A DNA stretch of 64,000 nucleotides from an uncultured Maribacter sp. (lineage in GTDB: Bacteria; Bacteroidota; Bacteroidia; Flavobacteriales; Flavobacteriaceae): the NCBI RefSeq assembly GCF_947500985.1, contig NZ_CANMTX010000001.1:248001-312000 (forward strand), read 5' to 3'. The notes under the pieces were generated by a model, which had not been told where the DNA came from, made no database searches, and saw nothing but the letters and a program-made list of their open reading frames with translations. Made by a program: the position numbers and the translations under genes. Positions within the stretch are counted from its first letter, which is position 1, and the number at the start of each line of letters is the position of its first letter. Positions 39,873 to 56,454 of this stretch are shown piece by piece.

Positions 39873-40907
39873 ATGTACAAGAATAAAAAAATAGTAATTA
39901 CACAGCATCTTATAATTTGGCTGGTGTTGTTTAGCATGCCCTTCGTTCTATCTTACGGGCAAGATTTGGATACAAATAGGTTGATTGCACATTTCTTAAT
40001 ACCAATGTTGTTCTATGCCGTAATATTTTATTTAAACTTTTTTGTACTCATAGACAGGTTTCTTTTCTCTAAGAAAACACTGATTTTTATCATCGTCAAT
40101 TTAGTCTTAATCGGTTTCTTTATTTTATTGAAAGAGTTTATTGAAGACAATTATTTTAGCGAACTAATTAATAATAGACCCCCAAATGCAAATAGGGAAG
40201 GACCACCGTTTAAATTGTTCATATATGTGCAAATGTTATCATATGCGGCACCTGTTTTATTATCGATAGCTATAAAATCAACTAAAAGATGGGTAAAGAC
40301 CGAAGCAGAACGAAAAGAGGCTGATAATTTTAAGTTACAAACAGAATTGCAACATCTTAGATATCAACTTCAACCGCATTTCTTTTTCAACTCTTTAAAT
40401 AACATATATTCATTAGTTGATATTTCGCCGGATAAGGCTAAATCTACCATACATAGTTTAGGTAAACTAATGCGGTATTTGCTTTATGAAACGAATACAG
40501 AATTGGTGACACTTTCAAAGGAAATCGAATTTATGCGAAAGTATATCGAGTTAATGAAATTAAGATTAACAGATAAAACTGAAGTAGAATCTAGTTTTCC
40601 GGTAAGTGATTCACAAATTAAAATTTCGCCTTTATTATTTATATCTTTAATAGAGAATGCTTTTAAACACGGTGTTTCTGCCAGTACAAAAAGTATGATT
40701 TCAATTGACATGGCCATTAAAGGAAATAAGGTGGATTTCACAATTGAAAATCATAATTTTCCAAAACAAGATAGTGACAAAAGTGGTAGTGGCATTGGCT
40801 TACCGAACTTAGAAAAACGGCTCCAATTATTATATCCAAATAAACATTCTTTTAAAAAAGAGCTTAAAGCTGGTGTTTACAGAGTTAATTTACAGATAGA
40901 GACTTAG
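39873..40907 (+). CDS. LytS-type sensor histidine kinase 1
   Basis: 344 residues: four membrane helices in the first ~150, a His_kinase (PF06580) region with phospho-acceptor His169 in QLQPHFFFNSLNNI, and an ATPase domain ending in SGIGLPNLEKRLQLLYP. The loop between helices contains NNRPPNANREGPPF. It is the fifth gene of the MacAB-TolC operon. The nearest plus-strand LytTR regulator lies 2.5 kb downstream after two other genes, and is the likely partner. Signal unknown. Confidence 0.88.
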   Translation: MYKNKKIVITQHLIIWLVLFSMPFVLSYGQDLDTNRLIAHFLIPMLFYAVIFYLNFFVLIDRFLFSKKTLIFIIVNLVLIGFFILLKEFIEDNYFSELINNRPPNANREGPPFKLFIYVQMLSYAAPVLLSIAIKSTKRWVKTEAERKEADNFKLQTELQHLRYQLQPHFFFNSLNNIYSLVDISPDKAKSTIHSLGKLMRYLLYETNTELVTLSKEIEFMRKYIELMKLRLTDKTEVESSFPVSDSQIKISPLLFISLIENAFKHGVSASTKSMISIDMAIKGNKVDFTIENHNFPKQDSDKSGSGIGLPNLEKRLQLLYPNKHSFKKELKAGVYRVNLQIET

Positions 40908-40966
40908 GTAGTGTTCTGTATAAAATGAAATTTTCATTATTATAAACTTGTTGTAACTATATACAT

Positions 40967-42292
40967 ATGAAAAGTAACTTACTATTTATAATTTTACTTC
41001 TAGTAAATATTCACCTTTTTGCACATGAAGGTGGTCATGGAGATCCTTTAAAACAATGGGAAATGACAACCACTGATATAATTATCAAGGCTGATTTTAT
41101 TTCATATGAAAATGATGAAATTTGGCTTATGGATGGCAATCATACTATTCAAAAGTTTCAAATTACAGATTTTACAGAAGCTGATCAAAAGTTTATTAAA
41201 ACAAAGAATGAATTCATTCATTCTTTAAATAGCAGCGCAGCTATTGAGGTTGATTCACAATCATTATCAAGTTTTCATTGGGCACTTATTGGTTTAGGTA
41301 TTTTCCTTTTGTCCTTTTCTGTTTTCAAATTGATAAAACAAAAAAAAGTAATATACTTAACTCACGGAGTTCTTGGTTTGAGTGTCATTTTAATAGTATC
41401 ATGTAAAAATACTGGTAATACTAAAACAAATACTGTGCAAGTACCAGCAAATGATGTTTCGCTAATGCAAACTTTTTTTAAAAAATTCGACGGTGTCACA
41501 ACGCATTCAGATGAGAACTACCTGTATGTTTCATCAAATGGATTACCAGATCATGACATGATGGTTGGTATTACAAACTGGCAGCAACAAGTGCCTATCA
41601 AACAAAATTATACCGGTGACAATAGTTGGGCTATACCTACGCATCCAAAAATGGCGGAACATCCACTTTCTACTAAAACGAACCTTTTAAAAGGTGCAAT
41701 TGCGGTTGCTGTTAATGGTATTCCAATTTTTAACCCATTAAACAATAGAGTTGAAGATGCTAATGCTATTGGAGAATTAGACAATTGGGGCGGACATTGC
41801 GGTCGTGCAGATGATTACCATTATCATTTACCACCATTGCATTTACAAGATCAAGTAGGCGCAGGTAACCCAGTGGCCTATGCTGTTGATGGGTTCCCGG
41901 TTTATGGAAAAACAACAGAGTCTCTCGATGAATATTTAGGTATATTAAACTCAGATGGGTCTTATGAATACCACACTATTGATGAATATCCATATTTTAT
42001 TGCAGGTATGCGAGGAGAGGTAGTGCTAGACCCAAAAACGGAAGCTCCTGAAAACCAGGTTTATCCCCAACCTAGAACTCAAGAATTACGACCTGCTTTA
42101 AGACCTTTACGCGGAGCTGAAATTATAAATTTTGAATCTACAGGTACTAACGCGTACTCTTTAACTTATCGCTTAGATTCTAAAGACTATATTATAAATT
42201 ATGGATGGGAAAATGATAATGTTTACACCTACGAATTCTTAAATCCTGATGGAACATCAACTATAGAAACGTACAAACCTAGAAAAAAATGA
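40967..42292 (+). CDS. Two-part membrane protein with C-terminal YHYH domain
   Basis: 441 residues. Residues 1-19 are a signal peptide (cleavage after LFA would leave His20-Glu-Gly-Gly-His). A domain to ~100 is followed by a helix (104-122) and then KKVIYLTHGVLGLSVILIVSC (127-146), itself shaped like a lipoprotein signal ending in lipobox IVSC. The YHYH domain follows, with HCGRADDYHYHLPPLHL (YHYH at 283-286), YAVDGFPVYG and the NYGWENDNVYTYEFLNPDG end. It looks like a fusion of two secreted proteins. Its stop overlaps the next start (ATGA). Confidence 0.75.
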   Translation: MKSNLLFIILLLVNIHLFAHEGGHGDPLKQWEMTTTDIIIKADFISYENDEIWLMDGNHTIQKFQITDFTEADQKFIKTKNEFIHSLNSSAAIEVDSQSLSSFHWALIGLGIFLLSFSVFKLIKQKKVIYLTHGVLGLSVILIVSCKNTGNTKTNTVQVPANDVSLMQTFFKKFDGVTTHSDENYLYVSSNGLPDHDMMVGITNWQQQVPIKQNYTGDNSWAIPTHPKMAEHPLSTKTNLLKGAIAVAVNGIPIFNPLNNRVEDANAIGELDNWGGHCGRADDYHYHLPPLHLQDQVGAGNPVAYAVDGFPVYGKTTESLDEYLGILNSDGSYEYHTIDEYPYFIAGMRGEVVLDPKTEAPENQVYPQPRTQELRPALRPLRGAEIINFESTGTNAYSLTYRLDSKDYIINYGWENDNVYTYEFLNPDGTSTIETYKPRKK

Positions 42293-43308
42293 AACAAACT
42301 TCGCTAGTAATACTTGCTCTTATTTCTTTTACAATAATTGGTTGTAAGAATAGTAATAAAACTGCACAAACAGATGTAAAACCAAAGTCAGAAATTAATA
42401 TATATAAAGGTACAGCCTCAGTTTCTCAAGGACTGGCAACAGTTGAAACTGAAAACATATACGATTGTGATAGAGGTAGAAAAGCACCTATTGGAACATC
42501 TACAGCAACAGATGGTAGTAGTTGGACTGTACCTGCATTAGTTAATTTTACCGATGATAATTTCCCTTTTGCTTCAGATTTGTTCAACCCTTGTACAAAA
42601 GTTGAATACGCTTCCGCAGATGAAGCCTTAGCAGCATTAGATGGTACAGATATTGTTGAAGTTGATGCAGATGGCGAAGTAATTACAGCGTATATATTTG
42701 CTGACAATTATTTTGAAATGTACATTAACGGTATTCCTGTTGGTAAAGACAATGTGCCTTTTACGCAATTTAATTCTAACATTGTCAGGTTTAAGGTAAA
42801 AACCCCTTTTACTATCGCCATGAAGCTAGTCGACTGGGAAGAGAATAGTGGGCTAGGATCAGAAAGTAATAGGGGAAAAGCATTTCACCCTGGAGATGGT
42901 GGTATGGTTGGCGTTTTCAAAAATGCCAACAATGAAATTATTGCCACTACAAGTTCAAATTGGAAAGCACAGACTTATTACACCGCACCAATAAAAGATT
43001 TATCATGTGTTTCTGAAAAAGGTGCTTTGAGATTAAGTGATAATTGCAGTACCGAAGATTCAGATGATGGAACCTCTTACTTTGCCTTACACTGGAAAAC
43101 TCCATCAGATTGGCAATCAACAAGTTTCGATGATAGTCAATGGCCTAATGCATCTGTATATGCAAATAATGTTATTGGTGTAGACAACAAACCCTCATAC
43201 ACCAACTTTACAGATATTTTCGATAATACTTCTACCGATGCCCAATTTATATGGTCTACTAATGTAATTTTGGATAATGAGGTGCTTGTTAGGTATACTG
43301 TAGATTAA
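42289..43308 (+). CDS. Lipoprotein partner of the YHYH protein
   Basis: 339 residues with lipobox TIIGC (Cys19) and no acidic export tag, so probably periplasmic-facing. The rest is beta-rich, with segments such as NYFEMYINGIPVGKD, RFKVKTPFTIAMKLVDWEE and WQSTSFDDSQWPNASVY, the last two recalling galactose-binding-like jelly-roll domains that cap enzymes. I do not recognise a family with known function. The ATGA overlap with the YHYH gene implies coupled translation and a shared role. Confidence 0.7.
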   Translation: MKQTSLVILALISFTIIGCKNSNKTAQTDVKPKSEINIYKGTASVSQGLATVETENIYDCDRGRKAPIGTSTATDGSSWTVPALVNFTDDNFPFASDLFNPCTKVEYASADEALAALDGTDIVEVDADGEVITAYIFADNYFEMYINGIPVGKDNVPFTQFNSNIVRFKVKTPFTIAMKLVDWEENSGLGSESNRGKAFHPGDGGMVGVFKNANNEIIATTSSNWKAQTYYTAPIKDLSCVSEKGALRLSDNCSTEDSDDGTSYFALHWKTPSDWQSTSFDDSQWPNASVYANNVIGVDNKPSYTNFTDIFDNTSTDAQFIWSTNVILDNEVLVRYTVD

Positions 43309-43411
43309 ACTATCTGATAGCAAAATCACTGATTAAATACACGAAAATAACAGCATTATTTACGTTTAAAATTTAGAAATTATTGTTCATTAAGAAATCT
43401 TAAATACTAAT

Positions 43412-44155
43412 ATGGAAGCTATTCAAATAACCTGTATGATTGTTGACGATGAGCCTATGGCTGTTAATCTTGTAGAGAGTTATGTAGAAAAGACCCCTTA
43501 TTTAAAGTTGATTAAAAAATGTAATAGCGCAATTGAAGCTATGCAGTTTTTAAATTCAGAACAAGTTGACCTTCTTTTTCTTGACATTCAGATGCCAGAT
43601 TTAACTGGAATCGAATTTTCTAAAATGCTTCCGAAAAACACTAAGGTAATATTCACTACTGCTTTTGATCAATATGCACTTGAAGGTTTTAAGGTTGAGG
43701 CTTTAGATTATCTACTTAAACCTTTTGATTATGTCGAATTCTTAACAGCTTCAAATAAAGCTTTAGAATGGTTTTCTTTAGTTAGGGGTAACACTGCGAT
43801 TCAAAGTAAAGAAATACCTCAAGAAAAGGAGTTTCTTTTCGTAAAGTCAGAATACAAACAACTGAGAATTAAACTTTCAGACGTATTATATTTTGAAGGA
43901 TTGAAAGACTATATTAAAATTTGGCTGAAAGACAACCCCAAAGCTATTTTAACATTAATGAGCCTTAAGAGTTTGGAGGAGGAATTACCGGGAACACATT
44001 TTATGCGTGTACACCGATCATTCATTGTAGCTCTTAAATATGTTGAAGTTGTTGAGCGTAGTCAAATCATTATCAACAAACAACGCATTACGGTTTCAGA
44101 GCAATACAAACCTCGGTTTTTAGAATACATCAATAATAATTCATTGAATTCTTAA
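43412..44155 (+). CDS. LytTR response regulator 1
   Basis: 247 residues: receiver domain (about 5-120; acidic pair D12/D13, phospho-acceptor Asp58 in LLFLDIQMP, Lys103 in YLLKPF) and a LytTR DNA-binding domain (about 145-240; HFMRVHRSFIVALKYVEVVERSQIII). It follows the YHYH pair on the same strand, 103 bases on, and likely pairs with the kinase at 39873. Targets are unknown; the YHYH genes themselves are plausible. Confidence 0.9.
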   Translation: MEAIQITCMIVDDEPMAVNLVESYVEKTPYLKLIKKCNSAIEAMQFLNSEQVDLLFLDIQMPDLTGIEFSKMLPKNTKVIFTTAFDQYALEGFKVEALDYLLKPFDYVEFLTASNKALEWFSLVRGNTAIQSKEIPQEKEFLFVKSEYKQLRIKLSDVLYFEGLKDYIKIWLKDNPKAILTLMSLKSLEEELPGTHFMRVHRSFIVALKYVEVVERSQIIINKQRITVSEQYKPRFLEYINNNSLNS

Positions 44156-44336
44156 GGTTCAAAATTGATGTTATTGCTAGAATATTACTATCTGATTCTA
44201 TAGCTACTTTAGACGATTTATATTTAAAAAGTGCCATATTATCTTTCTAAAATTTGATTATTTGAGGTAATTATATATTTAATCTCATTAATGTCTCATT
44301 TAGATAAGCTTTAAATTCATTTGAAATTAAAAAGTA

Positions 44337-44840
44337 ATGAGCAGAGGGTTTGTCAAAGAAGAAGATCAAGAGGAAATACCGATGGTGCCACCTAGGGCAG
44401 ATTTACCCAAAGGAGCGGTTAATTACGTTACCAAAATTGGGTATAATAATTTGTTAGAAGAAAGAAATGCCTTATCAGTTGAAAAGGAATCTTTACAACA
44501 CGACAACGAGAAAGAAAGACGTATTGCGAGTAATTTAATCAATGCTAAATTACAATTACTGAATGAGCGAATTTCAAGCGCCAAAATCGTAGACTTAAGC
44601 GAACAACCTCAGAATGAAGTTCGTTTTGGTGCAACGGTTCTAGTAGTAATTGATACTACTGAAACACCGCAACAATTTCAAATAGTAGGGGTTGATGAAG
44701 CAAACATAGCGAAAGGTAAAATTTCGTTTTTATCACCAATAGCTAGAGTTTTAATATCTAAACATGTTGGCGATACTGCAACATTACAATTAGGTAATGT
44801 TGAGCGTGTGTTCAAAATTATGGAGATATCGTACACTTGA
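44337..44840 (+). CDS. GreA/GreB-like transcription factor
   Basis: 167 residues. Residues ~25-85 form a coiled coil (EERNALSVEKESLQHDNEKERRI) and ~90-165 the FKBP-like C-terminal domain, with VRFGATVLVVIDTTETPQQFQIVG and SPIARVLISKHVGDTATL typical of GreA/GreB. It would act in the RNA polymerase secondary channel. The coiled coil is preceded by a 20-residue extension absent from E. coli GreA, and the tip acidic pair is not obvious, so it could be a Gre-like antagonist rather than a cleavage factor. Confidence 0.82.
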   Translation: MSRGFVKEEDQEEIPMVPPRADLPKGAVNYVTKIGYNNLLEERNALSVEKESLQHDNEKERRIASNLINAKLQLLNERISSAKIVDLSEQPQNEVRFGATVLVVIDTTETPQQFQIVGVDEANIAKGKISFLSPIARVLISKHVGDTATLQLGNVERVFKIMEISYT

Positions 44841-44883
44841 TAAATGCAGTCTTTAATACAGTAAATTCTAAATTGATATGAAT

Positions 44884-44915
44884 AAAAAAGAGGACCCGTT
44901 GGGTCCTCTTTTTTT
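44884..44915. terminator. Bidirectional terminator
   Basis: 14-bp stem (44884-44897 with 44901-44914) with a 3-base loop, A-tract and T-tract; shared by the Gre-like gene and the convergent DUF4494 gene. Confidence 0.88.
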
Positions 44916-44936
44916 ATGCTATATATATAACTGCGC

Positions 44937-45494
44937 TTATTCTTCGCTTGACATTACATCACTTAATTCTAATGCTTCATCCATTGAATTATCAACCGGA
45001 ACTGAATCTTTTAACACATTGAATTTTTCTACTCGTTCCATATCATCTTCTTCACCAGAAAAATATGGAAAAACATCCATAATTGGAGATTCCGCTATTG
45101 ATGGTACAGAGTATTCACCCATAGTATCTTTCATTACACTTATAGTATTGTCATAAGCTTCCTTTACATCATTCGCCTGTATTAGTAAATACATGTTCGT
45201 TTTACGTTCCTTACCACTTTCTTCGTCAAAAGCAATTAAAGAAACTTTAGATTTGAACCATCTATCTGAATTTTCGAATGGATGAATCTCGGCAAAATTA
45301 GCGACCTTAATATTGGTGATTTTAATTTCTTCCGTATCGCTTAAGTAAACTGACATCTCTTCAGTAATTCTACTTTCGGCTTCGGTATAAGAAATGGCAT
45401 CAACCAAAAAAGGTTCTGTTTTTACCTTTAACATTCCTGAAGCTTCGTCTAGCTTTCTATATTTTATTTTACACTCGTACCAAGTTGCACTCAT
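44937..45494 (-). CDS. DUF4494 protein
   Basis: 185 residues starting MSATWYECKIKYRKLDEASGM, the conserved DUF4494 start. Two similar beta-alpha halves follow (WYECKIKYRKLD / RWFKSKVSLIAFDEESGKE), suggesting internal duplication. The last 50 residues are acidic. A purine-rich AAAGGAAATT precedes the ATG, one of the few SD-like sites here. The family is cytoplasmic, common in Bacteroidetes and without known function. Monocistronic. Confidence 0.82.
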   Translation of the reverse strand: MSATWYECKIKYRKLDEASGMLKVKTEPFLVDAISYTEAESRITEEMSVYLSDTEEIKITNIKVANFAEIHPFENSDRWFKSKVSLIAFDEESGKERKTNMYLLIQANDVKEAYDNTISVMKDTMGEYSVPSIAESPIMDVFPYFSGEEDDMERVEKFNVLKDSVPVDNSMDEALELSDVMSSEE

Positions 45495-45682
45495 AATTTC
45501 CTTTTATTTTGGGGTGCTAAATATACTTCTTAGTCATAGTTTGAAAAGCCAAAAAACGCAATAGATATTCACAATTTAAAGGTGATGAGTATAGTCTCCT
45601 CAAAATTAGATACTTAGAATTTTTTCAAGAATTTTAGAAATTCTGAACCATTAGATAATATAAAAATGAAAAGGATTACTAA

Positions 45683-47447: not shown

Positions 47448-47636
47448 GATGCAAATAAAAGGAATAAAAATTCAAACAAACCCCGTATACAAGGCTATAA
47501 ATAGGTGATATTAAAGAGTTCGCTGCTTATAATATGGCATTCACTTAAAAGTAAACGTCAAGCACTTAATACGCTCATATTACATTAAAGTTTCTTACAT
47601 CTTTGTTCTCGAATATTAACTATAAAATTAAAACAT

Positions 47637-47918
47637 ATGAAACGTATTACATTAAAAACAGGATTATTATTTGCCATGTTAGTTGCATTTGGAACAGTAG
47701 CAGTTAACGCACAGTCTAAAGGCGAAAGAAAAGAGCCCCCAACATTTACTGAGCTTTTAAAGCAAATGGATAAAGATGAAGATGGTCAACTTTCTAAAGA
47801 CGAGGTAAAAGGACCTTTAAAAGATGATTTCGATAAAATTGATACTGATGAAGATGGTTTTCTTACTGAAGAAGAATTAGAAAAGGCTCCTAAACCAAAA
47901 GGAAGACCTAAAAATTAA
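47637..47918 (+). CDS. Exported EF-hand protein
   Basis: 93 residues with a signal peptide ending near VAVNAQ (residue 26) and two canonical EF-hand loops, DKDEDGQLSKDE (45-56) and DTDEDGFLTEEE (69-80), each with Asp at 1, 3, 5 and Glu at 12. It should bind calcium in the periplasm. The Lys/Pro tail (KAPKPKGRPKN) is basic. It is divergent from the LytS/LytTR pair and followed by its own terminator, so it is not in the YHYH operon that follows. Confidence 0.88.
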   Translation: MKRITLKTGLLFAMLVAFGTVAVNAQSKGERKEPPTFTELLKQMDKDEDGQLSKDEVKGPLKDDFDKIDTDEDGFLTEEELEKAPKPKGRPKN

Positions 47919-48027: not shown

Positions 48028-48780
48028 ATGGTATTATTCAGAAAAGTTAGGAGAAAACTAATAGGCTTAGATAAATTCAAAAGTTATTTTATTTATGCTC
48101 TTGGTGAAGTGTTGTTAATTGTTGTTGGGCTTTTAATTGCTTGGAAAATAAACAGCCTTAATGAGATTAAAAAAAATAGAATTGTTGAACTAAAAATATA
48201 TAAAAGTTTAAGTCAAGAACTTGATACTAATTTAATTGTTCTAGATAGTGCCATTGTAAAATATACAAATAGTATACAAAAGCTTCAGAATACTATTAAT
48301 TATTTAGGCATGCCTACCAATGAATTATCTCAAGACGCTAAAGCTTTAATTGTGAATTTAAACTATGATAGAACTATAGTGCGAGATGAAGCAATCAACT
48401 CGATAAATGTTACTAATAAATTTGAATTTATTAATAGTGACTCGCTTAAACAATTGATTGCTGCTTACCCTAATGAATTGGATAGTTTTGACAATCAACA
48501 AGATAGAATTGAAAATATTATATCCAATAGGTTAAAACCAATTATAGAAAAGCATATTTCATTAATTGAAATTCTGCCTCAAAATAGTTATAACTATAAT
48601 AGAATGAAAGTATATGGCAATCAATCTAACTATACCGAATTACTGGTAAATAGAGAGTATCAAAACAGTATTATAGATAGACTATTGCAAACTAAAGGAC
48701 AATTGACTATTGCAAAAAATTTAAGACAGAAAACAGAAACAATTGCCACAAAGTTGAATCAAGAGTTGAACAGACCTTAA
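48028..48780 (+). CDS. DUF6090 membrane protein
   Basis: 250 residues beginning with a short basic segment (LFRKVRRKLIGLDKFKSYF), then one membrane helix (about 22-44, FIYALGEVLLIVVGLLIAWKIN), then a long helical periplasmic part. This matches DUF6090, widespread in Flavobacteriia, with no known function. It opens the YHYH operon: the next gene starts 36 bases after its stop. Confidence 0.78.
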   Translation: MVLFRKVRRKLIGLDKFKSYFIYALGEVLLIVVGLLIAWKINSLNEIKKNRIVELKIYKSLSQELDTNLIVLDSAIVKYTNSIQKLQNTINYLGMPTNELSQDAKALIVNLNYDRTIVRDEAINSINVTNKFEFINSDSLKQLIAAYPNELDSFDNQQDRIENIISNRLKPIIEKHISLIEILPQNSYNYNRMKVYGNQSNYTELLVNREYQNSIIDRLLQTKGQLTIAKNLRQKTETIATKLNQELNRP

Positions 48781-48816: not shown

Positions 48817-49878
48817 ATGATACAGAAAAATAAATACTCAATTTTGGCTTACTTCATTTTTGCCTTTACCGCTATTACCTTTGTAAGTTGTAGTGATGAT
48901 GACTCTTCTACAACAGATGATTCGGTAATTGAAGATGAAGATGATACAGTTACCGATGGCACTGACGATGACACCACAGATGAAGATACAAATACAGTAA
49001 GTGTTGACGCTTCTTATTTCTATACTACAGATGGCTCTGTAACTATTACTACTGTGCCCTGTACATTATCAGACGGTACTGAAACAGATTGTTATCAAAT
49101 AGTTACGACCAGTCTACCTGGAGATCATGAAATGGGACCATGGTGCCCTGGTAATATTGAAGATGATGCTACAGCAGGTGGTATTTGGCTAGAAGGTGGA
49201 GAAGTATATGATGTAGATGGTGCTTTCGTTGAAAATATGGCAACATTCTATAATGATCCAAATTGGTTGATGTACGATGCCAACGGTGATATTTATATTA
49301 CCGATACCCAAGAGGATTGTGAAAATGCCGCTAACCCTAATGTTGGTGATGAATATGAAAATTTCTGTGTAGAATGTCTACCTTCCTATATCACAGATTT
49401 AACGCAAACATGGACTATTCCTATTACTCCGGTTTCACAAGATACTCCTGTACTATTTACTACCACAGGTGGTGGTCCTGGAGGTCCAGGAACAACAACA
49501 GCTCCATCAACACGTGGAGTAGCATTGAACGGAATTGAATTTTCTGCTCCAGCACCTGTTGATAATATTTTAGGTGCATATACATTAGCTCCTTTTGATG
49601 ATGCTGGTGGTCACATTAACGTTAACCAAGGGTATCATTACCACGCAGCAACGGGCTTTAGTACTAAAGTAGCTCAAGATGACGGGCATGCTGCCTTAAT
49701 TGGTTATGCTTTGGATGGATTTGGAATTTATGAATTGGCTGATAGCAGCGGTGTCGATGCTACCGATTTGGATGAACTACGAGGACATTCTGATGATACT
49801 AGAGGTTACCATTACCATGTAGATGCAGCTGGTAATAACAACTTTATTGATGGATTAAAAGGTGCTTACGTAAACTAA
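48817..49878 (+). CDS. Surface lipoprotein with YHYH domain (a)
   Basis: 353 residues. Lipoprotein signal with Cys25 in FVSCSDDDSS; the SDDD right after the Cys is the kind of acidic export tag linked to outer-surface lipoproteins in Flavobacteria, followed by a long Asp/Thr linker to about residue 65. The domain has Cys pairs (TVPCTLSDGTETDC, CVEC), a GGGPGGPGTTT spacer near 227 and two YHYH copies (GYHYHAATG near 273, RGYHYHVDA near 330), with GYALDGFGIYEL between. PF14240 proteins have no assigned activity that I know. Confidence 0.82.
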   Translation: MIQKNKYSILAYFIFAFTAITFVSCSDDDSSTTDDSVIEDEDDTVTDGTDDDTTDEDTNTVSVDASYFYTTDGSVTITTVPCTLSDGTETDCYQIVTTSLPGDHEMGPWCPGNIEDDATAGGIWLEGGEVYDVDGAFVENMATFYNDPNWLMYDANGDIYITDTQEDCENAANPNVGDEYENFCVECLPSYITDLTQTWTIPITPVSQDTPVLFTTTGGGPGGPGTTTAPSTRGVALNGIEFSAPAPVDNILGAYTLAPFDDAGGHINVNQGYHYHAATGFSTKVAQDDGHAALIGYALDGFGIYELADSSGVDATDLDELRGHSDDTRGYHYHVDAAGNNNFIDGLKGAYVN

Positions 49879-49888: not shown

Positions 49889-50506
49889 ATGAAAAAGTAT
49901 ATCTTAATTTATATAACCGGGCTATTTTCATTGCTAGGTTATGCCCACAACCCAGATGCCTCTACAACTATGTTAGTTGAGAAGGAAAATAACACCTGGG
50001 TGCTACAGATCAGTTCTTCATTAACCGCTTTTCAGCAAGAAGTACGAACACATTTTGCAGAAACTCCGTATAAAACCCCCGAGGAGTTTCAACAAATGGT
50101 ATTGGAGCACATTAAAAACAATTTGGATATTAGTTTTAATGATGGTTCAAAAATCACCCTAGGTCAAGGAATTGTAAAACTAGGTCATGAGACAAAAGTA
50201 ATGTTTGAAGTATTTGGTATTCCCTCAGATTTACAATCTATACGCGTAAGAAATGCAGCATTTAAAGATATTGGTAGAAGTCAAAGTGCATTGTTCATTT
50301 TTAAAGATGGCTTCAGTAAAGATCAATTCATTTTAAATAATGATAATGACCATACTTTAAATCTAAAAGTTAATGGAAATAAGTTCGTGGAAGCGAGTCA
50401 ACAAAATGCAGGTATGGATTCCTCATATGTCATCTTAATTGTAATGAGCTTATTAGGTTTTAGCTTTTTAGTACAAAAGATTATTCTAACTAATGATGAA
50501 GTTTAA
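49889..50506 (+). CDS. Small exported protein with N-terminal His after cleavage (a), DUF6702-like
   Basis: 205 residues. Signal peptide 1-19 ends GYA, so cleavage would leave His20-Asn-Pro. A beta-alpha domain follows (about 25-165, with FQQMVLEHIKNNLDISFNDGSKI and KDQFILNNDNDHTLNLKVNG), then a C-terminal membrane helix (about 178-198). Similar to its neighbour at 50576 and, more weakly, to DUF6702 proteins. An exposed N-terminal His is the arrangement of copper histidine-brace proteins (CopC, LPMO), which is suggestive only. It lies in the YHYH operon. Confidence 0.65.
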   Translation: MKKYILIYITGLFSLLGYAHNPDASTTMLVEKENNTWVLQISSSLTAFQQEVRTHFAETPYKTPEEFQQMVLEHIKNNLDISFNDGSKITLGQGIVKLGHETKVMFEVFGIPSDLQSIRVRNAAFKDIGRSQSALFIFKDGFSKDQFILNNDNDHTLNLKVNGNKFVEASQQNAGMDSSYVILIVMSLLGFSFLVQKIILTNDEV

Positions 50507-50575: not shown

Positions 50576-51184
50576 ATGAAAAAAATACTGTTAATAACCG
50601 CATTATTTTTATTGACTTTTAAGATAGCGGAAGCGCACAATCCATTATCCGCCATGTATTATTTGGAAGTAGAAGGGGACTTTGGTATTCTGAACATTAG
50701 TCTTAGTCAAGCTGGTTTAGACCAAGCGTTAATAACATCTTTTCCAAATAAAGATATTTCGAAAATTTCTAATGAAGAATATAAAAAACTTGCGGTAGCA
50801 TACATTAAAGATCATTTTCAGTTAGCCGTTAATAATAAAGATGTCAATATTTTAAATGGGGGAATTAAACTTGGAAATCATCAGACCGATTTAAAGTTTA
50901 TTACTTCGGTAGTACCCGAGTCTTTTAATATAATTGATTTAAAAATCGATGCTTTTAAAGAAAATGACCATCATCAAACCATCTTTTCATTATTGTTAAA
51001 TGGTGAAACCAGTAAGGTGGTGTTGTCTGATAGTAACGATTATACCACTTCAAAAGTCTTTAAGAATAATCTAATGATTACCGATAATCAAAAATTCAAT
51101 GCAAATTATTTATGGTTTATCGCTGTAATACCAGTAGTTGTTTTTGGAAGAAAATTTTTGCCCTCAAGTAAATCAATTACTTAA
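50576..51184 (+). CDS. Small exported protein with N-terminal His after cleavage (b), DUF6702-like
   Basis: 202 residues. Signal peptide ends AEA at residue 20, leaving His21-Asn-Pro-Leu-Ser-Ala. The domain YIKDHFQLAVNNKDVNIL / NHQTDLKFITSVVPESF / SKVVLSDSNDYT parallels the preceding protein and the DUF6702 layout; a membrane helix near 178-194 and a basic tail end it. The two genes look like an old tandem duplication. It sits between two YHYH genes. Confidence 0.65.
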   Translation: MKKILLITALFLLTFKIAEAHNPLSAMYYLEVEGDFGILNISLSQAGLDQALITSFPNKDISKISNEEYKKLAVAYIKDHFQLAVNNKDVNILNGGIKLGNHQTDLKFITSVVPESFNIIDLKIDAFKENDHHQTIFSLLLNGETSKVVLSDSNDYTTSKVFKNNLMITDNQKFNANYLWFIAVIPVVVFGRKFLPSSKSIT

Positions 51185-51225
51185 AAACAGTTTAATATTT
51201 ATTCAATTCTTTAAAATATATTCTT

Positions 51226-52224
51226 ATGAAAAAAGGTGCTTTAAAAACCATAATGTCGTTGTTGTTTTTGTTTGGCATTCTACTTGTTGGTTTACTAGCT
51301 TGTAGTAGTGATGATACTACCGATATAGAAACTGATGTGGAGACCGAAGAGGTAGCCGACGCTACAATTCAAGAGTCTTTTTTTAATTCAACCTCATTAA
51401 TATCTTATACCAAAGTAGATTGTACGCTTGAAGATGGTACTACTGGCGATTGTTATGAGCTGGTATTTTCAAGCAATCCTATAGAGGATGGTCCTTATTG
51501 CCCAGAAACTATAGATGATATTGGTGGTTTGGGTATTTATGATGGTAACACTAACCCCGGATTCCAAGTTTTAAAGGCTGATTTATTTAATGCCATGGAG
51601 GCAGATGGGTATGATATTGTTGACGATAATGGCAATATCAACACTGATGATTTTAACTCAGGTATGGTTGATTCTGATTTATCATACTGCTTACAAGCTG
51701 CTCCTGATAATAATCTTCAGTTATCATTTTTAATACCTGCTACTCCAAAATTGGCTTCTTCCAATAATGATATCGATACTATTGAGTTAGTGGGCGTTTC
51801 TGTAGATGGTGTTCCCATAAATGGCAACCCGCCTTCGGTAACCAACCCAGGTAGAGAAATTGCCGGAAACATACCTTCTCTTGATCCTTGCGGAGGACAT
51901 AATGACCCTGCTGGTTATTACCATTGGCACTTTGTAGCAGAGACCATGAATCAAGTATTAGCAGCTAATGATATTACAGACGTAGAATGTACTTTAATAG
52001 AACAGGTAGTAGATACCAAACTAATAGGTTTTGCTAAAGATGGTTTTCCTATTTATGCTTATAACACAGAACCAGATGACTTAGATGATTGTGGTGGTAG
52101 AACATCGGTAACTACAGATTATCCAGACGGAGTGTACCATTATGTGGCTAGTAATACAGATGCACCTAACGTTCCAAAATGTTTAAAGGGTGTTGCTGCT
52201 AATAATAATTTTAATGTTCAATAG
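51226..52224 (+). CDS. Surface lipoprotein with YHYH-like domain (b)
   Basis: 332 residues with lipobox LLAC (Cys26) followed by SSDDTTDIETDVETEE, an acidic export tag and linker. The domain is diverged: GGHNDPAGYYHWHF (YHWH near 231) and GVYHYVASN near 303 replace exact YHYH copies, but GFAKDGFPIYAY and the DDCGGRTS segment between them are kept. Cys pairs (KVDCTLEDGTTGDC, DDCGG, VPKC) parallel lipoprotein (a). It ends the operon before a strong hairpin. Confidence 0.8.
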   Translation: MKKGALKTIMSLLFLFGILLVGLLACSSDDTTDIETDVETEEVADATIQESFFNSTSLISYTKVDCTLEDGTTGDCYELVFSSNPIEDGPYCPETIDDIGGLGIYDGNTNPGFQVLKADLFNAMEADGYDIVDDNGNINTDDFNSGMVDSDLSYCLQAAPDNNLQLSFLIPATPKLASSNNDIDTIELVGVSVDGVPINGNPPSVTNPGREIAGNIPSLDPCGGHNDPAGYYHWHFVAETMNQVLAANDITDVECTLIEQVVDTKLIGFAKDGFPIYAYNTEPDDLDDCGGRTSVTTDYPDGVYHYVASNTDAPNVPKCLKGVAANNNFNVQ

Positions 52225-52672
52225 GATAACAAAAACATAATTATACATCTATCTCCTTAGCCTAATAAGTAAGGGGTTTATATTAATGTAGTTTATACAA
52301 ATATAAAATAAGACAACTCAAAATCTAGCCATTAAATCTTAGTACGATTTAATGGCTAATTTTATTTAAAAACTTTCCTTTTGAGACCTAATTCTATCTC
52401 TTCTAAATAAAAAGTACTTATTAAAATTCACCATTCACTTAATACTTTCTGTGATTTACTGATTCTCAAAATATCCTTCAAAACTTAACTTTATACTTGT
52501 ATTGTAAAGTGTTAAAAACAAGTCGTTAAAACCATTTAGTTTATTGTAGAATTATATTTTATTCAAGTTTAATATTACCGGCAATTTAGAAATAGTAGAA
52601 ACGAAAGGTTAAAATTTCAACTTTATTAGAACTTAAATAAAATCTCTGAACTTAATTTAAAATATAAGAATC
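52225..52672. other. Intergenic region between YHYH operons
   Basis: 448 bases without a gene. It holds the terminator at 52326-52358; the remaining ~300 bases are AT-rich, with no open frame over 40 codons, and form the upstream region of the beta-helix gene. A GTATTGTAAAGTGTTAAAA stretch near 52500-52516 resembles one upstream of the next YHYH gene. Confidence 0.6.
52326..52358 (+). terminator. Terminator of the first YHYH operon
   Basis: Perfect 13-bp stem (52326-52338 with 52346-52358), 7-base loop, followed by ATTTTATTT. Confidence 0.82.
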
Positions 52673-54238
52673 ATGAAGTACAAAACATTTAATAAAGCAG
52701 GAATTTTAGCTATAGCATTAGCCGTTTTCACTTCTTGCAGTAGTGATGATAACGAAAATGAAACTACAACAACCACTGATGACGTTGTAATTACGAGCAC
52801 TAATTCAACAGGGACGGCTGAAGGAGATACTGATAATACGGGTGCCGATGAAGATGATTTAGTGGAAAATGCCACCTTTGAAAACACTGTTCAAATTGTA
52901 TTTTCAGAAACATCGGTTACTATTACAAATCCTGTACCCGATGATGTGGTAATTACACAAGATGGGGCAGATGTTACGGTTAGTTCCACTATTTCAGAAG
53001 TAGCCTATGAAGTTTCAGGGACCACAACAGATGGAATGTTGAAAATGTATAGCGATAAGAAATTTAAATTATCACTTACCGATTTAAGTATTACAAATAA
53101 TGATGGTCCTGCCATAAACATTCAATCATCAAAAACCATTTTTGTGCTATTGGAGGGTACAAATAATCTAATCGATGCCTCTAGTTATAGCGTTATACCA
53201 GATGATGAAGATGCAAAAGCAGCATTTTTTAGCGAAGGGCAATTGGTATTTAGCGGATCTGGTGCTCTTAATGTTGCAGGAAACTACAAACATGGTATAG
53301 CAAGTGATGATTACATTAGAGTTATTAGCGGTACAATTACGGTATCAGAAGCAGCATCGGATGGAATGCACACTAATGATTATATAATAATCGATGGAGG
53401 TACAATCAATATAAATGCAAGCAGTGATGGTATGGATTGTGGAGAAGGCTATATTATTATTAATTCCGGTACGTTCAATATAAATGCTATAGATGATGGA
53501 ATCGTTGCTTCTTACGATATTGATGATGAAGATGAACCAGATGATTCAATCACTCCTAATTTAACTATAAATGGTGGTGAGTTTACCATCACAACTTCTG
53601 AAGGAGAAGGAATGGAAGCCAAAGGTATTATGACCATAAATGATGGCAACATAAATATTGATGCCTATGATGACGGACTTAACGCCATTGGAACCTTATA
53701 TATAAATGGTGGAAATACTTTTGTAAAAAGCACACTTAACGATGCCATAGATAGTAATGCCGGTATTACTATTACTGGTGGTACTACGATTGCCATATCC
53801 GTTAGAACAGACGAACCTGATGGAAGTTTTGACACAGATGACAATCTGTTTAAGGTTACAGGTGGTACTATTTTAGGTTTGGCATTGAACACTTCTTTCC
53901 CAACAGAAAGCGCAAGTACTCAAAATACTGTAATTTTTGACGGTATAAGTGCCAATACATTATTGAACATTCAATCAGAAGATGGTACTGAAGCCCTAAC
54001 ATATGAAGTTCCTTACCGCGTAAATACCATCATTTATTCTAATTCAAAACTAGAAACTGGTAAAACATATACAATCTATACAGGAGGTAGTGTAAGTAAT
54101 GGTACTGAAGTTAACGGTCTATACACATCTGGCACATATAGCGGAGGTACAGATTCAGGTGATTTCTTTACCATTGATGGCACAGTAACTCAAATTGGTG
54201 GAGAATTAGGTCCTCAAGGTGAAAATGGAGGTAGATAA
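52673..54238 (+). CDS. Cthe_2159-like beta-helix lipoprotein
   Basis: 521 residues with lipobox FTSC (Cys22) and acidic tag SSDDNENE. Residues ~75-420 show parallel beta-helix rungs (IINSGTFNINAIDDGI, LTINGGEFTITTSEGEGM, MTINDGNINIDAYDDGL, ITITGGTTIAIS), the pattern of the carbohydrate-binding DUF4353 family, whose Cthe_2159 member binds polygalacturonic acid and calcium. Probably a surface glycan-binding protein rather than an active lyase. It has its own upstream region and is followed after 133 bases by a YHYH gene. Confidence 0.82.
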   Translation: MKYKTFNKAGILAIALAVFTSCSSDDNENETTTTTDDVVITSTNSTGTAEGDTDNTGADEDDLVENATFENTVQIVFSETSVTITNPVPDDVVITQDGADVTVSSTISEVAYEVSGTTTDGMLKMYSDKKFKLSLTDLSITNNDGPAINIQSSKTIFVLLEGTNNLIDASSYSVIPDDEDAKAAFFSEGQLVFSGSGALNVAGNYKHGIASDDYIRVISGTITVSEAASDGMHTNDYIIIDGGTININASSDGMDCGEGYIIINSGTFNINAIDDGIVASYDIDDEDEPDDSITPNLTINGGEFTITTSEGEGMEAKGIMTINDGNINIDAYDDGLNAIGTLYINGGNTFVKSTLNDAIDSNAGITITGGTTIAISVRTDEPDGSFDTDDNLFKVTGGTILGLALNTSFPTESASTQNTVIFDGISANTLLNIQSEDGTEALTYEVPYRVNTIIYSNSKLETGKTYTIYTGGSVSNGTEVNGLYTSGTYSGGTDSGDFFTIDGTVTQIGGELGPQGENGGR

Positions 54239-54371
54239 AAAACTATTCACCTATAAAAACTCTCTAATCACTTAAAGCTTACCGTTATTAACTGATTTCC
54301 AAAATCTGGTATGCACTAAGTTAGTAGTATTGTAGTGTTAAATCGCTGAAATTTAGCTCAAATTAAATATT

Positions 54372-55160
54372 ATGAAAAAAAATAGTCTAAAAAAAATTCC
54401 CCAAGTGTCATTTGTTTTGGCATTATCGTTCATCACCTTAATTGCATGTAGTAGTGATAGTGTTGATGATGATATTACAGAAGACATTGCTAGTAATGAT
54501 GACGATGATTCTGAAGAAGTCGTAACAGAATTACATGCTGCATATGCTGCATTTAATTCAGATGCTGTAACTGTTTATTTAGATGGGTCTGAGGTTGTTA
54601 TTGAAACTACTGGTTTACCTAATCACGAAACGGTTTATTGGGGCGAAGGTAATGAGCTTTATTTAGAAGAATCAGATGTTGCCACCACACCTAGTATTAT
54701 GTCTAGCAATAATAATGCGACAACTATTCGTGTAGATGCAACCCCTAATTTAACAGGTAGTACTATCGAGACTGAATTGAATACCATTGGTATAGCCGTT
54801 AGTGGATCTTCTATTTTTAACGATCAAGAAGGTGGCGGTACTTTAGACCAAGCTGCAGGAAGTTTAGACTGGACAGGTGCTCATATTGGTCCTGGAGTAT
54901 ATCATTATCATTTAGAGCCTAAAGCATTTACTGATGATGATGAAAATTTAGTAGGTGTTTTATTAGATGGTGTTTTTCTTTATGGTCGTAAGTGTAATTC
55001 TACAGGTGATTATCCTTCAGATCTAGATGCTTCTGGCGGACACACTTCTACTACTCAGTATACTGATGGTGAAGAAGAATATCATTACCATATTATAAAT
55101 GAAATTTATTCAACAACAGGATCATACCTTGCATTTGCAGGTCCTTACCAAGGATATTAA
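54372..55160 (+). CDS. Surface lipoprotein with YHYH domain (c)
   Basis: 262 residues with lipobox LIAC (Cys26), then SSDSVDDDITED and an acidic linker. Two YHYH copies, GVYHYHLEPK (near 177) and EEYHYHIINE (near 237), frame LVGVLLDGVFLYGRK and DLDASGGHT, the family core. Shorter than (a), without the Gly/Pro spacer. Its stop is 2 bases before the next gene, so it heads a three-gene operon with a MORN-2 lipoprotein and the Sco protein. Confidence 0.82.
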   Translation: MKKNSLKKIPQVSFVLALSFITLIACSSDSVDDDITEDIASNDDDDSEEVVTELHAAYAAFNSDAVTVYLDGSEVVIETTGLPNHETVYWGEGNELYLEESDVATTPSIMSSNNNATTIRVDATPNLTGSTIETELNTIGIAVSGSSIFNDQEGGGTLDQAAGSLDWTGAHIGPGVYHYHLEPKAFTDDDENLVGVLLDGVFLYGRKCNSTGDYPSDLDASGGHTSTTQYTDGEEEYHYHIINEIYSTTGSYLAFAGPYQGY

Positions 55161-55162
55161 GA

Positions 55163-55783
55163 ATGAGAATAGTTCAATTCCATATTATTTGTTTTATACT
55201 AATTTTTCAAGTCGGTTGTAAAAATACAACTGAGCCTAAAGCTTTGGTTAATGAACCAATAGTGATTAAGCAAGAAACTAAATTTAAAGAAGAATTAAAG
55301 CTAAATCAATTGGAAGGAACTTGGTATTACAAAAACTCACCTTATGATGGTTATTCAATAGCCTTACATGAAAATGGCAATTTGGCTGAAAAGGTGGGTT
55401 TTGTAAAAGGTAAAAGAGAAGGCGTTGTACAAAGATGGTCAGATACCGGTGTATTACGAGTTGAATTTCATTATATAAATAATCGTCTAGAAGGTTCGTA
55501 TAAAAGTTGGTGGGAGAATGGGCAATTAGCTCAAGAAGCTAACTATGTTAATGGAAACATGAACGGAGTAGAAAAGAAATGGTACGCAGATGGTCAATTG
55601 GCAAAAGAACGTCAATTGGTTAACGGTAGAGAAGAGGGATTACAAAAAGCGTGGTTAAAAAACGGAACCTTGTATGTAAATTACGAAGCCAAAAACGGAC
55701 GTATTTTTGGGTTACGAAGAGCCAATTCTTGCTATCAATTAGAAGATGAAGTTGTAATTAGATCAGAAAACGAATTATTATGA
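55163..55783 (+). CDS. MORN-2/YwqK-like lipoprotein
   Basis: 206 residues with lipobox QVGC (Cys19) and no acidic tag. Six or so MORN-2 repeats (about 50-185) follow the FVKGKREGVVQRWSDTG, NNRLEGSYKSWWENGQ and NGNMNGVEKKWYADGQ pattern of YwqK-type proteins. The role is probably binding or scaffolding. The start of the Sco gene overlaps its stop (ATGA), implying coupled translation. Confidence 0.8.
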   Translation: MRIVQFHIICFILIFQVGCKNTTEPKALVNEPIVIKQETKFKEELKLNQLEGTWYYKNSPYDGYSIALHENGNLAEKVGFVKGKREGVVQRWSDTGVLRVEFHYINNRLEGSYKSWWENGQLAQEANYVNGNMNGVEKKWYADGQLAKERQLVNGREEGLQKAWLKNGTLYVNYEAKNGRIFGLRRANSCYQLEDEVVIRSENELL

Positions 55784-56454
55784 ACAAGACAGTACTTTCT
55801 ATAGTTGTTATACTTCTTTTTGCTGCTTGTAAACAAACAGTAAAAAAAGAGGACATACAGGTTAAAGAGACCAGTAGGGTAGAGCACTTGCCTTATTATA
55901 ATGATGAATCATTTACACCACATTGGATAACTCCGAATACTGAAGAAGAAAAACAATTTCACAAAATTCCTGATTTTAAATTGGTTGATCAGTTAGGAGA
56001 TACATTGACTCAAAAATCATTTGAGAATCAAATTTACATTACGGACTTCTTTTTTACGAGTTGCCCAGGTATTTGTTTGAAGATGACCAATAATATGACG
56101 AAGGTGCAAGAAGCTTTTTTAGATAATTCTGAAGTAGCTATTCTTTCACATTCCGTTACCCCTTCAATAGATTCAGTTTCTGTCCTTAAAACATATGCTG
56201 AAAAGAATGGAGTTATAGATGCTAAATGGCACTTGGTTACTGGTGACAAAACTGAAATTTATAACTTAGGTAGAAACGAATATTTTGTAGAAAATGATTT
56301 AGGTATTCCTAAGGATATTAATGACTTTCTACATACCGAAAACTTCTTGCTCATAGATAAAAACAAGCACATACGTGGTATCTATAACGGATTAAATAGA
56401 GCATCTGTTGCGCAATTGATTACCGATGTAAATGCATTATTAGAAGAGAGTTGA
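55780..56454 (+). CDS. SCO1/SenC family lipoprotein
   Basis: 224 residues with lipobox FAAC (Cys17). Thioredoxin-like Sco fold: TDFFFTSCPGICLKM carries the CxxxC metal/redox pair (C95, C99) and FLHTENFLLIDK the conserved His (near 190). Sco proteins deliver copper to CuA of cytochrome oxidase or act as copper-dependent thiol reductases. Here it is coupled to a MORN-2 lipoprotein and a YHYH protein, not to oxidase genes, which is the main hint that the YHYH set handles copper. Confidence 0.9.
   Translation: MNKTVLSIVVILLFAACKQTVKKEDIQVKETSRVEHLPYYNDESFTPHWITPNTEEEKQFHKIPDFKLVDQLGDTLTQKSFENQIYITDFFFTSCPGICLKMTNNMTKVQEAFLDNSEVAILSHSVTPSIDSVSVLKTYAEKNGVIDAKWHLVTGDKTEIYNLGRNEYFVENDLGIPKDINDFLHTENFLLIDKNKHIRGIYNGLNRASVAQLITDVNALLEES

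What the first reader, a model, noticed from the sequence alone, without database searches (positions are those of the whole stretch)
39873..56454. YHYH protein island with two two-component systems, an EF-hand protein and a Sco copper chaperone
Four YHYH-domain proteins lie within 15 kb, each beside different envelope partners: a fusion protein with a jelly-roll lipoprotein, two DUF6702-like proteins, a beta-helix lipoprotein, a MORN-2 lipoprotein and a Sco protein. Two LytS/LytTR pairs and a MacAB-TolC pump frame them. YHYH proteins (PF14240) have no known activity that I am aware of. The density and consistent secretion suggest one surface or periplasmic system, possibly for copper or another metal. 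The shared function is inference; the gene content and operon structure are seen.
Basis: partly seen in the sequence, partly recalled or inferred. Interest (0 to 1): 0.75.

Follow-up and report, generated by a model that had tools for sequence, protein, structure and literature searches.

The report
YHYH proteins paired with copper handlers
A bacterial protein family of unknown job, YHYH, turns out to sit next to copper- and metal-handling genes and to carry a strictly kept cluster of likely metal-binding residues, which makes it a probable new part of how these bacteria handle copper at the cell surface.

Summary
Gene content confirmed; the genome is a Maribacter. The island holds two modules: HK1–YHYH_A–LipoA–RR1, and RR2–HK2/EF-hand … YHYH_B–DUF6702-like … YHYH_D–MORN–Sco. 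The triplet YHYH_D–MORN–Sco is in the main locus of all 20 Maribacter genomes read and in 15 of 19 D-type loci read elsewhere. Of 62 YHYH genes in 34 genomes, 21 lie within 4 kb of a Sco (0.34 expected) and 8 others within 4 kb of MbnP, of the copper-linked MbnP/MbnH pair (0.16 expected). Asp plus three His are kept in 185 of 187 cellular YHYH proteins but in 20 of 43 viral ones. A second such site is in 18 of 18 Sco-linked proteins outside the genus and lacking in 7 of 8 MbnP/H-linked ones. DUF6702 is a published N-terminal-His metal binder (PMC12537917). LytTR-like repeats mark the EF-hand and YHYH_D promoters in Maribacter only. A confident canonical model matched none of 240 solved chains compared. 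Best reading: envelope copper/transition-metal handling by a new metalloprotein family; metal identity and transfer direction are inferred.

The parts
39873..40907 (+). HK1, LytS-type histidine kinase (module 1)
   Evidence: PF06580 88.8 bits
40967..42292 (+). YHYH_A: YHYH domain behind an N-terminal region whose predicted mature end is a His (A|HEGGHG, by eye); one metal site
   Evidence: PF14240 57 bits; DHHH, second site RAAS; A-type clade 100*
42289..43308 (+). LipoA, lipoprotein of unknown family, partner of YHYH_A in relatives
   Evidence: no Pfam or NCBIfam hit; near YHYH_A in L038, L040, L042, L050
43412..44155 (+). RR1, LytTR response regulator (module 1)
   Evidence: PF00072 + PF04397
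45683..46357 (-). RR2, LytTR response regulator (module 2)
   Evidence: PF00072 + PF04397
46350..47447 (-). HK2, LytS-type histidine kinase (module 2)
   Evidence: PF06580 83.1 bits
47542..47569 (+). LytTR-like 21-bp direct repeat in the divergent HK2/EF-hand promoter
   Evidence: only exact match in the genome; pattern upstream of EF-hand in 16 of 18 genus loci
47637..47918 (+). secreted protein with two EF hands
   Evidence: PF13405 and related models, 2 stretches
48028..48780 (+). DUF6090-like protein
   Evidence: PF19578 18.2 bits, below cut-off 23.5
48817..49878 (+). YHYH_B, lipoprotein with acidic N-terminus, two metal sites, DUF6702-linked clade
   Evidence: PF14240 44.1 bits; two-site; clade 99*; lipobox CSDDDS
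49889..50506 (+). DUF6702a-like: His20 right after the predicted signal peptide, His100, C-terminal hydrophobic stretch
   Evidence: H20 and H100 each 120 of 120 relatives
50576..51184 (+). DUF6702b-like, divergent relative with the same A|H start
   Evidence: 25% identity to DUF6702a; alignment
51226..52224 (+). YHYH_C, lipoprotein, site 1 intact, site 2 degenerate (DRHV)
   Evidence: PF14240 89.2 bits
52415..52463 (+). three LytTR-like repeats, 21-bp period, upstream of Cthe_2159
52673..54238 (+). Cthe_2159 beta-helix lipoprotein
   Evidence: PF14262 221 bits; lipobox
54248..54296 (+). three LytTR-like repeats, 21-bp period, upstream of YHYH_D
   Evidence: two-repeat pattern upstream of YHYH_D in 16 of 19 genus loci
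54372..55160 (+). YHYH_D, lipoprotein with acidic N-terminus, two metal sites (DHHH + DHHH), Sco-linked
   Evidence: PF14240 33.5 bits
55163..55783 (+). MORN_2 protein starting just after YHYH_D; probable lipoprotein (QVGC by eye; not matched by my lipobox pattern)
   Evidence: PF07661 57.6 bits
55780..56454 (+). Sco lipoprotein with CPGIC and distal His (DFLHTENFLLID), overlapping MORN
   Evidence: PF02630 80.8 bits; motifs; tree

Best explanation
YHYH (PF14240) is a family of secreted metalloproteins, and this island encodes an envelope system that handles copper (perhaps also other late transition metals) under LytS/LytTR control. Each YHYH domain binds a metal through an Asp-His-His-His site; the Sco- and DUF6702-linked types carry a second copy of the site from an internal duplication. 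YHYH_B, C and D are lipoproteins with the Ser/acidic start known from surface-exposed Bacteroidota lipoproteins; the DUF6702-like proteins are N-terminal-His metal binders with a C-terminal anchor; Sco is a lipoprotein with copper-ligand motifs and no such surface signal. Most likely mechanism: YHYH catches the metal at the outer surface or in the periplasm and exchanges it with its Sco (or with DUF6702, or in other genomes MbnP/MbnH or HupE/UreJ), which delivers it to cuproproteins. RR2 acts on the HK2/EF-hand promoter and the YHYH_D-MORN-Sco promoter through 21-bp direct repeats. Shown by sequence: conserved neighbourhood, conserved quartet, site number matching partner, shared promoter repeats within the genus. 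Inferred: that YHYH binds metal, that the metal is copper, the direction of transfer, the surface location and which regulator binds.
For: Sco within 4 kb of 21 of 62 YHYH genes (expected 0.34) and MbnP within 4 kb of 8 of 62 (expected 0.16), the two sets disjoint (the 4 kb limit was set after seeing neighbourhoods). Triplet YHYH-MORN-Sco in 15 of 19 D-type loci read outside the genus, Sco in 17 of 19. MbnH within four genes in 60 of 80 and MbnP in 54 of 80 canonical loci (a biased set). In 38 linked Sco proteins one pattern finds CxxxC in 35, the distal His motif in 35 and both in 33 (a miss does not show absence). 21 of the 38 linked Sco, put in a tree with 19 other Sco of YHYH genomes, need 2 label changes (shuffled mean 13.6, 0 of 500 as low); one clade is not rejected, p 0.23. 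Site 1 DHHH in 185 of 187 cellular proteins. Second site in 18 of 18 Sco-linked and 3 of 3 DUF6702-linked, against 1 of 8 MbnP/H-linked, proteins outside the genus (L066 read). Halves align to each other in two-site types, E 6e-7. The window's DUF6702 subfamily is next to a YHYH gene in 6 of 6 cases in 34 YHYH genomes, 3 of the 6 being in this genome. DUF6702 of another species binds Ni, Co and Cu at pM to nM (PMC12537917 section 7). A Deinococcus YHYH gene is followed by HupE/UreJ-2. Promoter repeats in the genus: EF-hand 16 of 18, YHYH_D 16 of 19, YHYH_B 0 of 16, YHYH_A 0 of 5.
Against: No binding, expression or phenotype data. PaDUF6702 prefers Ni over Cu and HupE is a nickel permease family, so the DUF6702-linked half may be a nickel system. 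In 2013 MbnP homologues were said to lack data linking them to copper and to be little like CorA/MopE (PMC3621798); here a W-x-H like CorA's Kyn62/His64 is absent (0 of 59), although two Trp, a His and a Met are in 59 of 59. YHYH domains also occur in 463 of 50,697 phage records, and 23 of 43 viral-contig proteins lack part of the quartet, so the fold has uses without this metal site. 21 of 50 YHYH proteins outside the genus had no Sco, MbnP/H or DUF6702 within three genes. The promoter repeat was not found upstream of any of 30 YHYH genes from other loci. The surface signal on YHYH and its lack on Sco would put the two on different sides of the outer membrane, which a direct hand-over must explain; in longer YHYH proteins the acidic start is less consistent (15 of 27). 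Neighbourhood counts were not corrected for phylogeny.
Confidence: 0.6

Rival explanations
1. YHYH is itself a copper (or other metal) enzyme, for example an oxidase acting on a surface polymer or small molecule, and Sco or MbnH matures its metal site.
For: Sco proteins are often dedicated to particular cuproenzymes (recalled); the linked Sco proteins cluster on the tree. Conserved Tyr near the His residues (Y175, Y225, Y311, Y313) could be redox-active. MbnH-like partners have two haem motifs (65 of 65). CotH, sulfatase and beta-helix neighbours suggest a surface polymer.
Against: No homology or fold match to any enzyme found (not a full fold search). Two sites in some clades and one in others, following the partner, looks more like binding capacity than one active site.
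Confidence: 0.2
2. YHYH is a zinc-dependent hydrolase (peptidoglycan or polysaccharide), as proposed for phage versions.
For: PMC7824862 (one passage read) predicts a Zn site of conserved His and Asp and a tail-associated metal-dependent hydrolase; a quartet of this kind is kept in cells and in 20 of 43 viral proteins.
Against: 23 of 43 viral proteins lack part of the quartet. In cells the enriched partners tested are copper-linked.
Confidence: 0.08
3. It is a nickel/cobalt or general divalent-metal capture system; Sco acts as a thiol reductant, not as a copper chaperone.
For: A DUF6702 protein binds Ni at 5.6 pM and Cu at 3.3 nM; Deinococcus YHYH is beside HupE/UreJ-2; in L120 genes that read like a metal ABC transporter stand before the triplet (by eye, not tested against a library).
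Against: Sco and MbnP/MbnH, both copper-linked, are each enriched beside YHYH.
Confidence: 0.12

Closest known systems
MbnP/MbnH and CorA/CorB (MopE/SACCP) copper pairs
   Same: Bacteroidota canonical YHYH genes often stand directly after an MbnP-MbnH pair; secreted; likely copper role. CorA binds Cu(I) through kynurenine and two His and is copper-repressed with corB (PMC3912023, passages).
   Different: YHYH hits no MbnP or MbnH model in Pfam, uses an Asp-His-His-His motif, and in this window MORN-Sco stands where MbnP/H stand elsewhere.
Sco/PCuAC copper delivery to cytochrome oxidase
   Same: Sco with CPGIC and distal His in the operon.
   Different: No oxidase subunit or PCuAC among the Pfam hits of the island; this Sco clusters with other YHYH-linked Sco.
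DUF6702 metal sequesterase and HupE/UreJ-2 'anglerases' (PMC12537917)
   Same: The DUF6702-like proteins carry the His right after the signal peptide; Deinococcus YHYH pairs with HupE/UreJ-2.
   Different: That paper's text does not mention YHYH (0 occurrences) and names other neighbours for DUF6702 (M1 peptidases, HAD_2). Whether its modelled ligands His28 and His32 match His55, His74 or His100 here was not tested.
YcnI/CopC/PmoF1 copper binders
   Same: Secreted copper-binding proteins (PMC10952591 passages; PMC8424229 search listing only).
   Different: No sequence match of YHYH to a solved one and no match among 240 compared chains.

Membership tests
YHYH (PF14240) | Pfam model over its curated cut-off | tested here: met
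   57, 44.1, 89.2, 33.5 bits against 25
YHYH (PF14240) | conserved His motif H...YH[YW]H after an Asp | tested here: met
   DHHH in all four window proteins
SCO1/SenC | Pfam SCO1-SenC over cut-off | tested here: met
   80.8 bits against 22.8
SCO1/SenC | CxxxC and distal His copper ligands | tested here: met
   FTSCPGIC and DFLHTENFLLID in the window protein; role of these residues recalled
SCO1/SenC | copper delivery shown | not testable with these tools
   needs the bench
DUF6702 (PF20420) | Pfam model over cut-off | tested here: not met
   DUF6702a 17.9 bits against 24, DUF6702b no hit; relatives at 64-65% identity are precomputed PF20420, so called DUF6702-like only
DUF6702 (PF20420) | His at the predicted mature N-terminus | tested here: met
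   H20 in 120 of 120 relatives, Ala before it in 115 of 120; cleavage itself not tested
MbnP/MbnH operon | MbnP and di-haem MbnH beside the YHYH genes of the window | tested here: not met
   own genome has one MbnP match, at C2:22425, not in this island
Phage-tail zinc hydrolase proposal | intact metal quartet in viral members | tested here: inconclusive
   intact in 20 of 43; activity not testable here
LytTR regulon | direct repeats one 21-bp period apart upstream of target genes | tested here: met
   within the genus only; LytTR spacing rule recalled; binding not tested

The most novel reading that the evidence does not exclude
YHYH is a new class of copper-capture protein with a fold not yet solved: a duplicated Asp-His-His-His half-site, double in the Sco-linked surface lipoproteins and single in the MbnP/H-linked ones, that collects copper outside the cell and passes it to dedicated partners; phages reuse the fold, many after losing the metal site.
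Probability: 0.33. Interest if true: 0.85.

Novelty: new variant of a known kind. Interest (0 to 1): 0.72.

Why it matters
PF14240 occurs in bacteria, is listed for diatoms and matches 463 phage records, most of them named as Synechococcus phages or cyanophages; the three held papers that name the domain give only a prediction or a listing. The evidence here gives it a concrete, testable role, links separately studied metal modules (Sco, MbnP/MbnH, DUF6702/HupE) through one shared neighbour, and names the residues to mutate. How Bacteroidota take up copper across the outer membrane is poorly understood (recalled), so a conserved surface lipoprotein tied to a Sco would be a useful entry point.

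Tried and rejected
One unit of four YHYH genes: rejected, because YHYH_A groups with other A-types (100*) and lies between its own kinase and regulator, and YHYH_C stands on a long branch of unsure place. MacAB-TolC as part of the system: only adjacent. DUF6702 as homologue of the HupE/UreJ-2 N-terminal domain: only the signal peptide aligned, not shown. CorA-type W-x-H in MbnP: 0 of 59. The D-type AlphaFold model was poor (pLDDT 55) and was not searched. PDB by sequence: window YHYH_C gave two hits at E 0.78 or worse; with A1 seven hits, all reaching only the C-terminal part of the profile where the secretion tail lies, and one weak hit to a histone deacetylase, E 0.083; with A4 nothing better than E 0.44. 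CotH as an essential member: no match in this whole genome, although a cluster of 13 read loci has it. Lanmodulin: the EF-hand protein scores 27 bits against a cut-off of 135, so not a member. A first promoter script found no sequences because of a wrong pattern; repeated. Reading the second site by profile alignment left gaps in several proteins, so it was redone by pattern; the promoter pattern was set after seeing the sites. The profile that collected YHYH proteins in the read loci was seeded with proteins chosen by a YH[YWF]H and a DG motif, so the quartet count leans towards it, although loci came from the Pfam model and the viral and 80-locus sets from a DG pattern without His. Copper + SCO1 + Bacteroidetes + YHYH gave no paper.
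Full report
Observation. The window belongs to a Maribacter: named relatives of YHYH_D at 95% and of DUF6702a at 97% are Maribacter. The genes of the finding are present as open frames. The genome has 8 YHYH genes on four contigs, four of them here.

Two modules, not one. In the genus I read the main locus with a D-type YHYH in 20 genomes, this one included; the fragmentary contigs of G009 and G020 were not read. In 20 of 20 YHYH_D, MORN and Sco stand in a row (in L077 YHYH_D is split), and in 18 of 20 the RR2-HK2 pair and the EF-hand gene are in the same island; in G023 they lie on the next stretch, in G002 they were not seen in the stretch fetched. A second copy in this genome, L069, is rearranged. 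YHYH_B-DUF6702, CotH (PF08757) and DUF6090 come and go. HK1-YHYH_A-LipoA-RR1 is a second unit: it is seen in L040 and L042, without HK1 in L038, and in L048 HK1 and RR1 stand side by side without YHYH_A and LipoA. In G023, YHYH_A and LipoA sit beside thioredoxin- and redoxin-like genes.

Beyond the genus. PF14240 was found in 27 of 60 relatives and 34 of 296 genomes of the phylum, this one included. I read 19 loci with D-type YHYH outside the genus: 15 have the full triplet, 2 have Sco without a recognised MORN (L124, L125), 2 have MORN without Sco (L117, L121). Two of them, in other genera of the family, also have CotH, EF-hand-like genes and histidine-kinase/regulator pairs (L107, L108; the EF hands tested in L107 only). 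Counting from coordinates, 62 YHYH genes in 34 genomes have a Sco within 4 kb in 21 cases (0.34 expected from Sco number and genome size) and an MbnP within 4 kb in 8 cases (0.16 expected); no gene has both. At genome level YHYH (34) and MbnP (78) co-occur in 22 genomes (Fisher p 5e-7; the total was entered as 297 instead of 296; not corrected for phylogeny).

A second copper-linked partner. Canonical YHYH genes follow MbnP (PF20243) and a di-haem CCP_MauG protein. In 80 named loci fetched with a canonical alignment, MbnH is within four genes in 60 and MbnP in 54. This set is biased: the query's first sequence is itself MbnP/H-linked and only the 80 best of 561 confirmed matches were kept. A similar sigma factor and small Spy/LTXXQ-like gene (14.9 bits against a cut-off of 24.3) precede both kinds of operon: YHYH-MORN-Sco in L115 and L132, MbnP-MbnH-YHYH in L066 and L110. 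Published support: CorA binds Cu(I) by kynurenine and two His and is co-transcribed with the di-haem CorB (PMC3912023, passages); MbnP and MbnH are a widely conserved pair whose copper link was open in 2013 (PMC3621798, passages). [quoted passage not shown] its content is recalled. A passage of PMC9426467 says that MbnPH-like, ScoC, PcuAC, YcnI and CopC genes share operons with homologues of bp2923.

The metal quartet. On alignment A4, Asp164, His169, His176 and His178 are all present in 185 of 187 cellular YHYH proteins (pieces of 150 aa or less from the read loci were dropped). The two exceptions are half of a split gene (L077) and an edge protein reading DQHH (L214). In 43 proteins of viral contigs, chosen at under 90% identity, Asp is kept in 42 but the full quartet in 20. 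A second copy of the pattern, D-x(3,4)-[GH]-H ... YHYH, occurs nearer the C-terminus. Outside the genus it is present in 18 of 18 Sco-linked and 3 of 3 DUF6702-linked proteins; of 8 MbnP/H-linked ones, 6 lack it by pattern, L066 was missed by the pattern and reads DRAF by alignment, and 1 has it (L135, an A-type neighbour of a canonical gene); of 21 others, 4 have it. In the genus 19 of 20 Sco-linked, 15 of 18 DUF6702-linked and 2 of 10 other proteins have it; in the 80-locus scan 1 of 64 MbnP/H-linked, 3 of 22 other and 1 of 2 DUF6702-linked proteins do. The two halves align to each other in two-site types (probability 92, E 6e-7) and weakly over the whole family (probability 42, E 3e-4). Site number needs 4 changes on the tree.

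Trees. YHYH groups broadly follow partners (quick method, several gappy rows): 20 Sco-linked proteins fall in two supported sets (98*: 8 of 8 rows; 96*: 12 of 15 rows) whose union is not supported; DUF6702-linked 99* (6 of 8 rows); A-type 100*; a set without tested partners 96* (10 rows); and a 98* set of 21 rows that holds 9 of the 10 MbnP/H-linked proteins. For Sco I used 21 of the 38 linked proteins and 19 others from YHYH genomes (20 regions fetched, 19 gave a usable Sco): 2 changes, shuffled mean 13.6, 0 of 500 as low; one clade is not rejected (p 0.23). Inside the larger supported set of 28 rows that holds all linked Sco there are also 7 others, six of them as a group of their own and one long branch (L319).

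DUF6702. Relatives of DUF6702a have an invariant His right after the signal peptide's usual Ala (H20 120 of 120; A19 115 of 120) and an invariant His100 (120 of 120). I saw this in an alignment before finding PMC12537917, which reports DUF6702 as an N-terminal-His metal sequesterase (Ni 5.6 pM, Co 3.6 nM, Cu 3.3 nM; section 7 read) and HupE/UreJ-2 proteins with N-terminal-His 'anglerase' domains (passages). YHYH is not mentioned there (0 occurrences). Searching 34 YHYH genomes with the window's DUF6702 alignment gave 6 genes, 3 of them in this genome, all next to a YHYH gene. In Deinococcus sp. KNUC1210 a YHYH gene (235.6 bits) is followed at once by HupE/UreJ-2.

Location. YHYH_B, C, D and Cthe_2159 have a lipobox followed by Ser and acidic residues; Sco has a lipobox followed by Lys. 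SDDDD and SDDFE are surface-export signals deduced for Bacteroides fragilis and Flavobacterium johnsoniae (PMC5080379, passages). Of 39 YHYH proteins of 240-300 aa, 30 had a lipobox by pattern and 29 of these are net acidic by 2 or more after the Cys; of 31 of 310-400 aa, 27 had one and 15 are so; of 38 Sco proteins 33 had one and 28 are net basic; MORN 14 of 38, near neutral. Hence the short YHYH types are probably outside and Sco inside; not tested.

Regulation. The divergent HK2/EF-hand promoter holds an exact direct repeat CACTTAA-N14-CACTTAA at 47542-47569, the only exact match in the genome; with one mismatch the genome has 7 against 4 for the reversed-pattern control. Triple arrays of the same period stand before Cthe_2159 and YHYH_D (as a whole, 20 matches with up to 3 mismatches against 15.5 expected is not significant). 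Conservation carries the claim: upstream of EF-hand in 16 of 18 loci, YHYH_D 16 of 19, YHYH_B 0 of 16, YHYH_A 0 of 5, other genes 27 of 501, 18 of these 27 being HK2, which shares the EF-hand promoter. The pattern was set after seeing the sites, and none of 30 YHYH upstream regions from loci outside this set, including two other loci of this genome, has it. A 21-bp period fits LytTR regulators (recalled); RR2 is the likely binder (inference).

Literature. The word YHYH occurs in 26 held papers, and three of them use the domain name or PF14240. Passages read: predicted Zn-binding, metal-dependent hydrolase of phage tails (PMC7824862); [quoted passage not shown] listed for diatoms in temperate waters (PMC11992049). 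None of these passages links it to copper.

Verdict. The step from neighbourhood and conserved ligands to 'binds copper' remains inference.

Noticed in passing
L069 (own genome, C11:66000-79635), about 9000-13414: A second, rearranged copy: EF-hand and Sco on one strand, MORN and two YHYH genes on the other.
   Followed up: partly
window 40967-42292: YHYH_A and several relatives start, after the predicted signal peptide, with A|H followed by x-GGH, a possible N-terminal-His metal site (read by eye).
   Followed up: no
L227-L306 (viral contigs) and 463 of 50,697 phage records: YHYH domains are common in cyanophage records; of 43 viral-contig proteins 23 lack part of the His/Asp quartet.
   Followed up: partly
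L068 8000-9541 (own genome C2), L047 and L064: Another YHYH type is followed by a DUF6702-like gene; in L064 a ceramidase gene (PF05875) lies further upstream.
   Followed up: no
L040:17248-18711 and relatives; L218: CotH kinase family genes join YHYH-MORN-Sco operons and, by a home-made profile, a YHYH-MbnP-MbnH locus in L218, yet this genome has none.
   Followed up: partly
L065, L117, L139, L106, L126, L141, L142: Arylsulfotransferase- or sulfatase-like genes recur near YHYH genes (clusters; Pfam checked for L065 and L142).
   Followed up: no
L044:11591-12661: An AraC-type regulator fused to an SCO4226-like domain, which Pfam calls nickel responsive; genes of similar length follow Sco in some other Maribacter loci.
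   Followed up: no
L077 8629-9404: YHYH_D of one Maribacter is split into two reading frames; described only.
   Followed up: no
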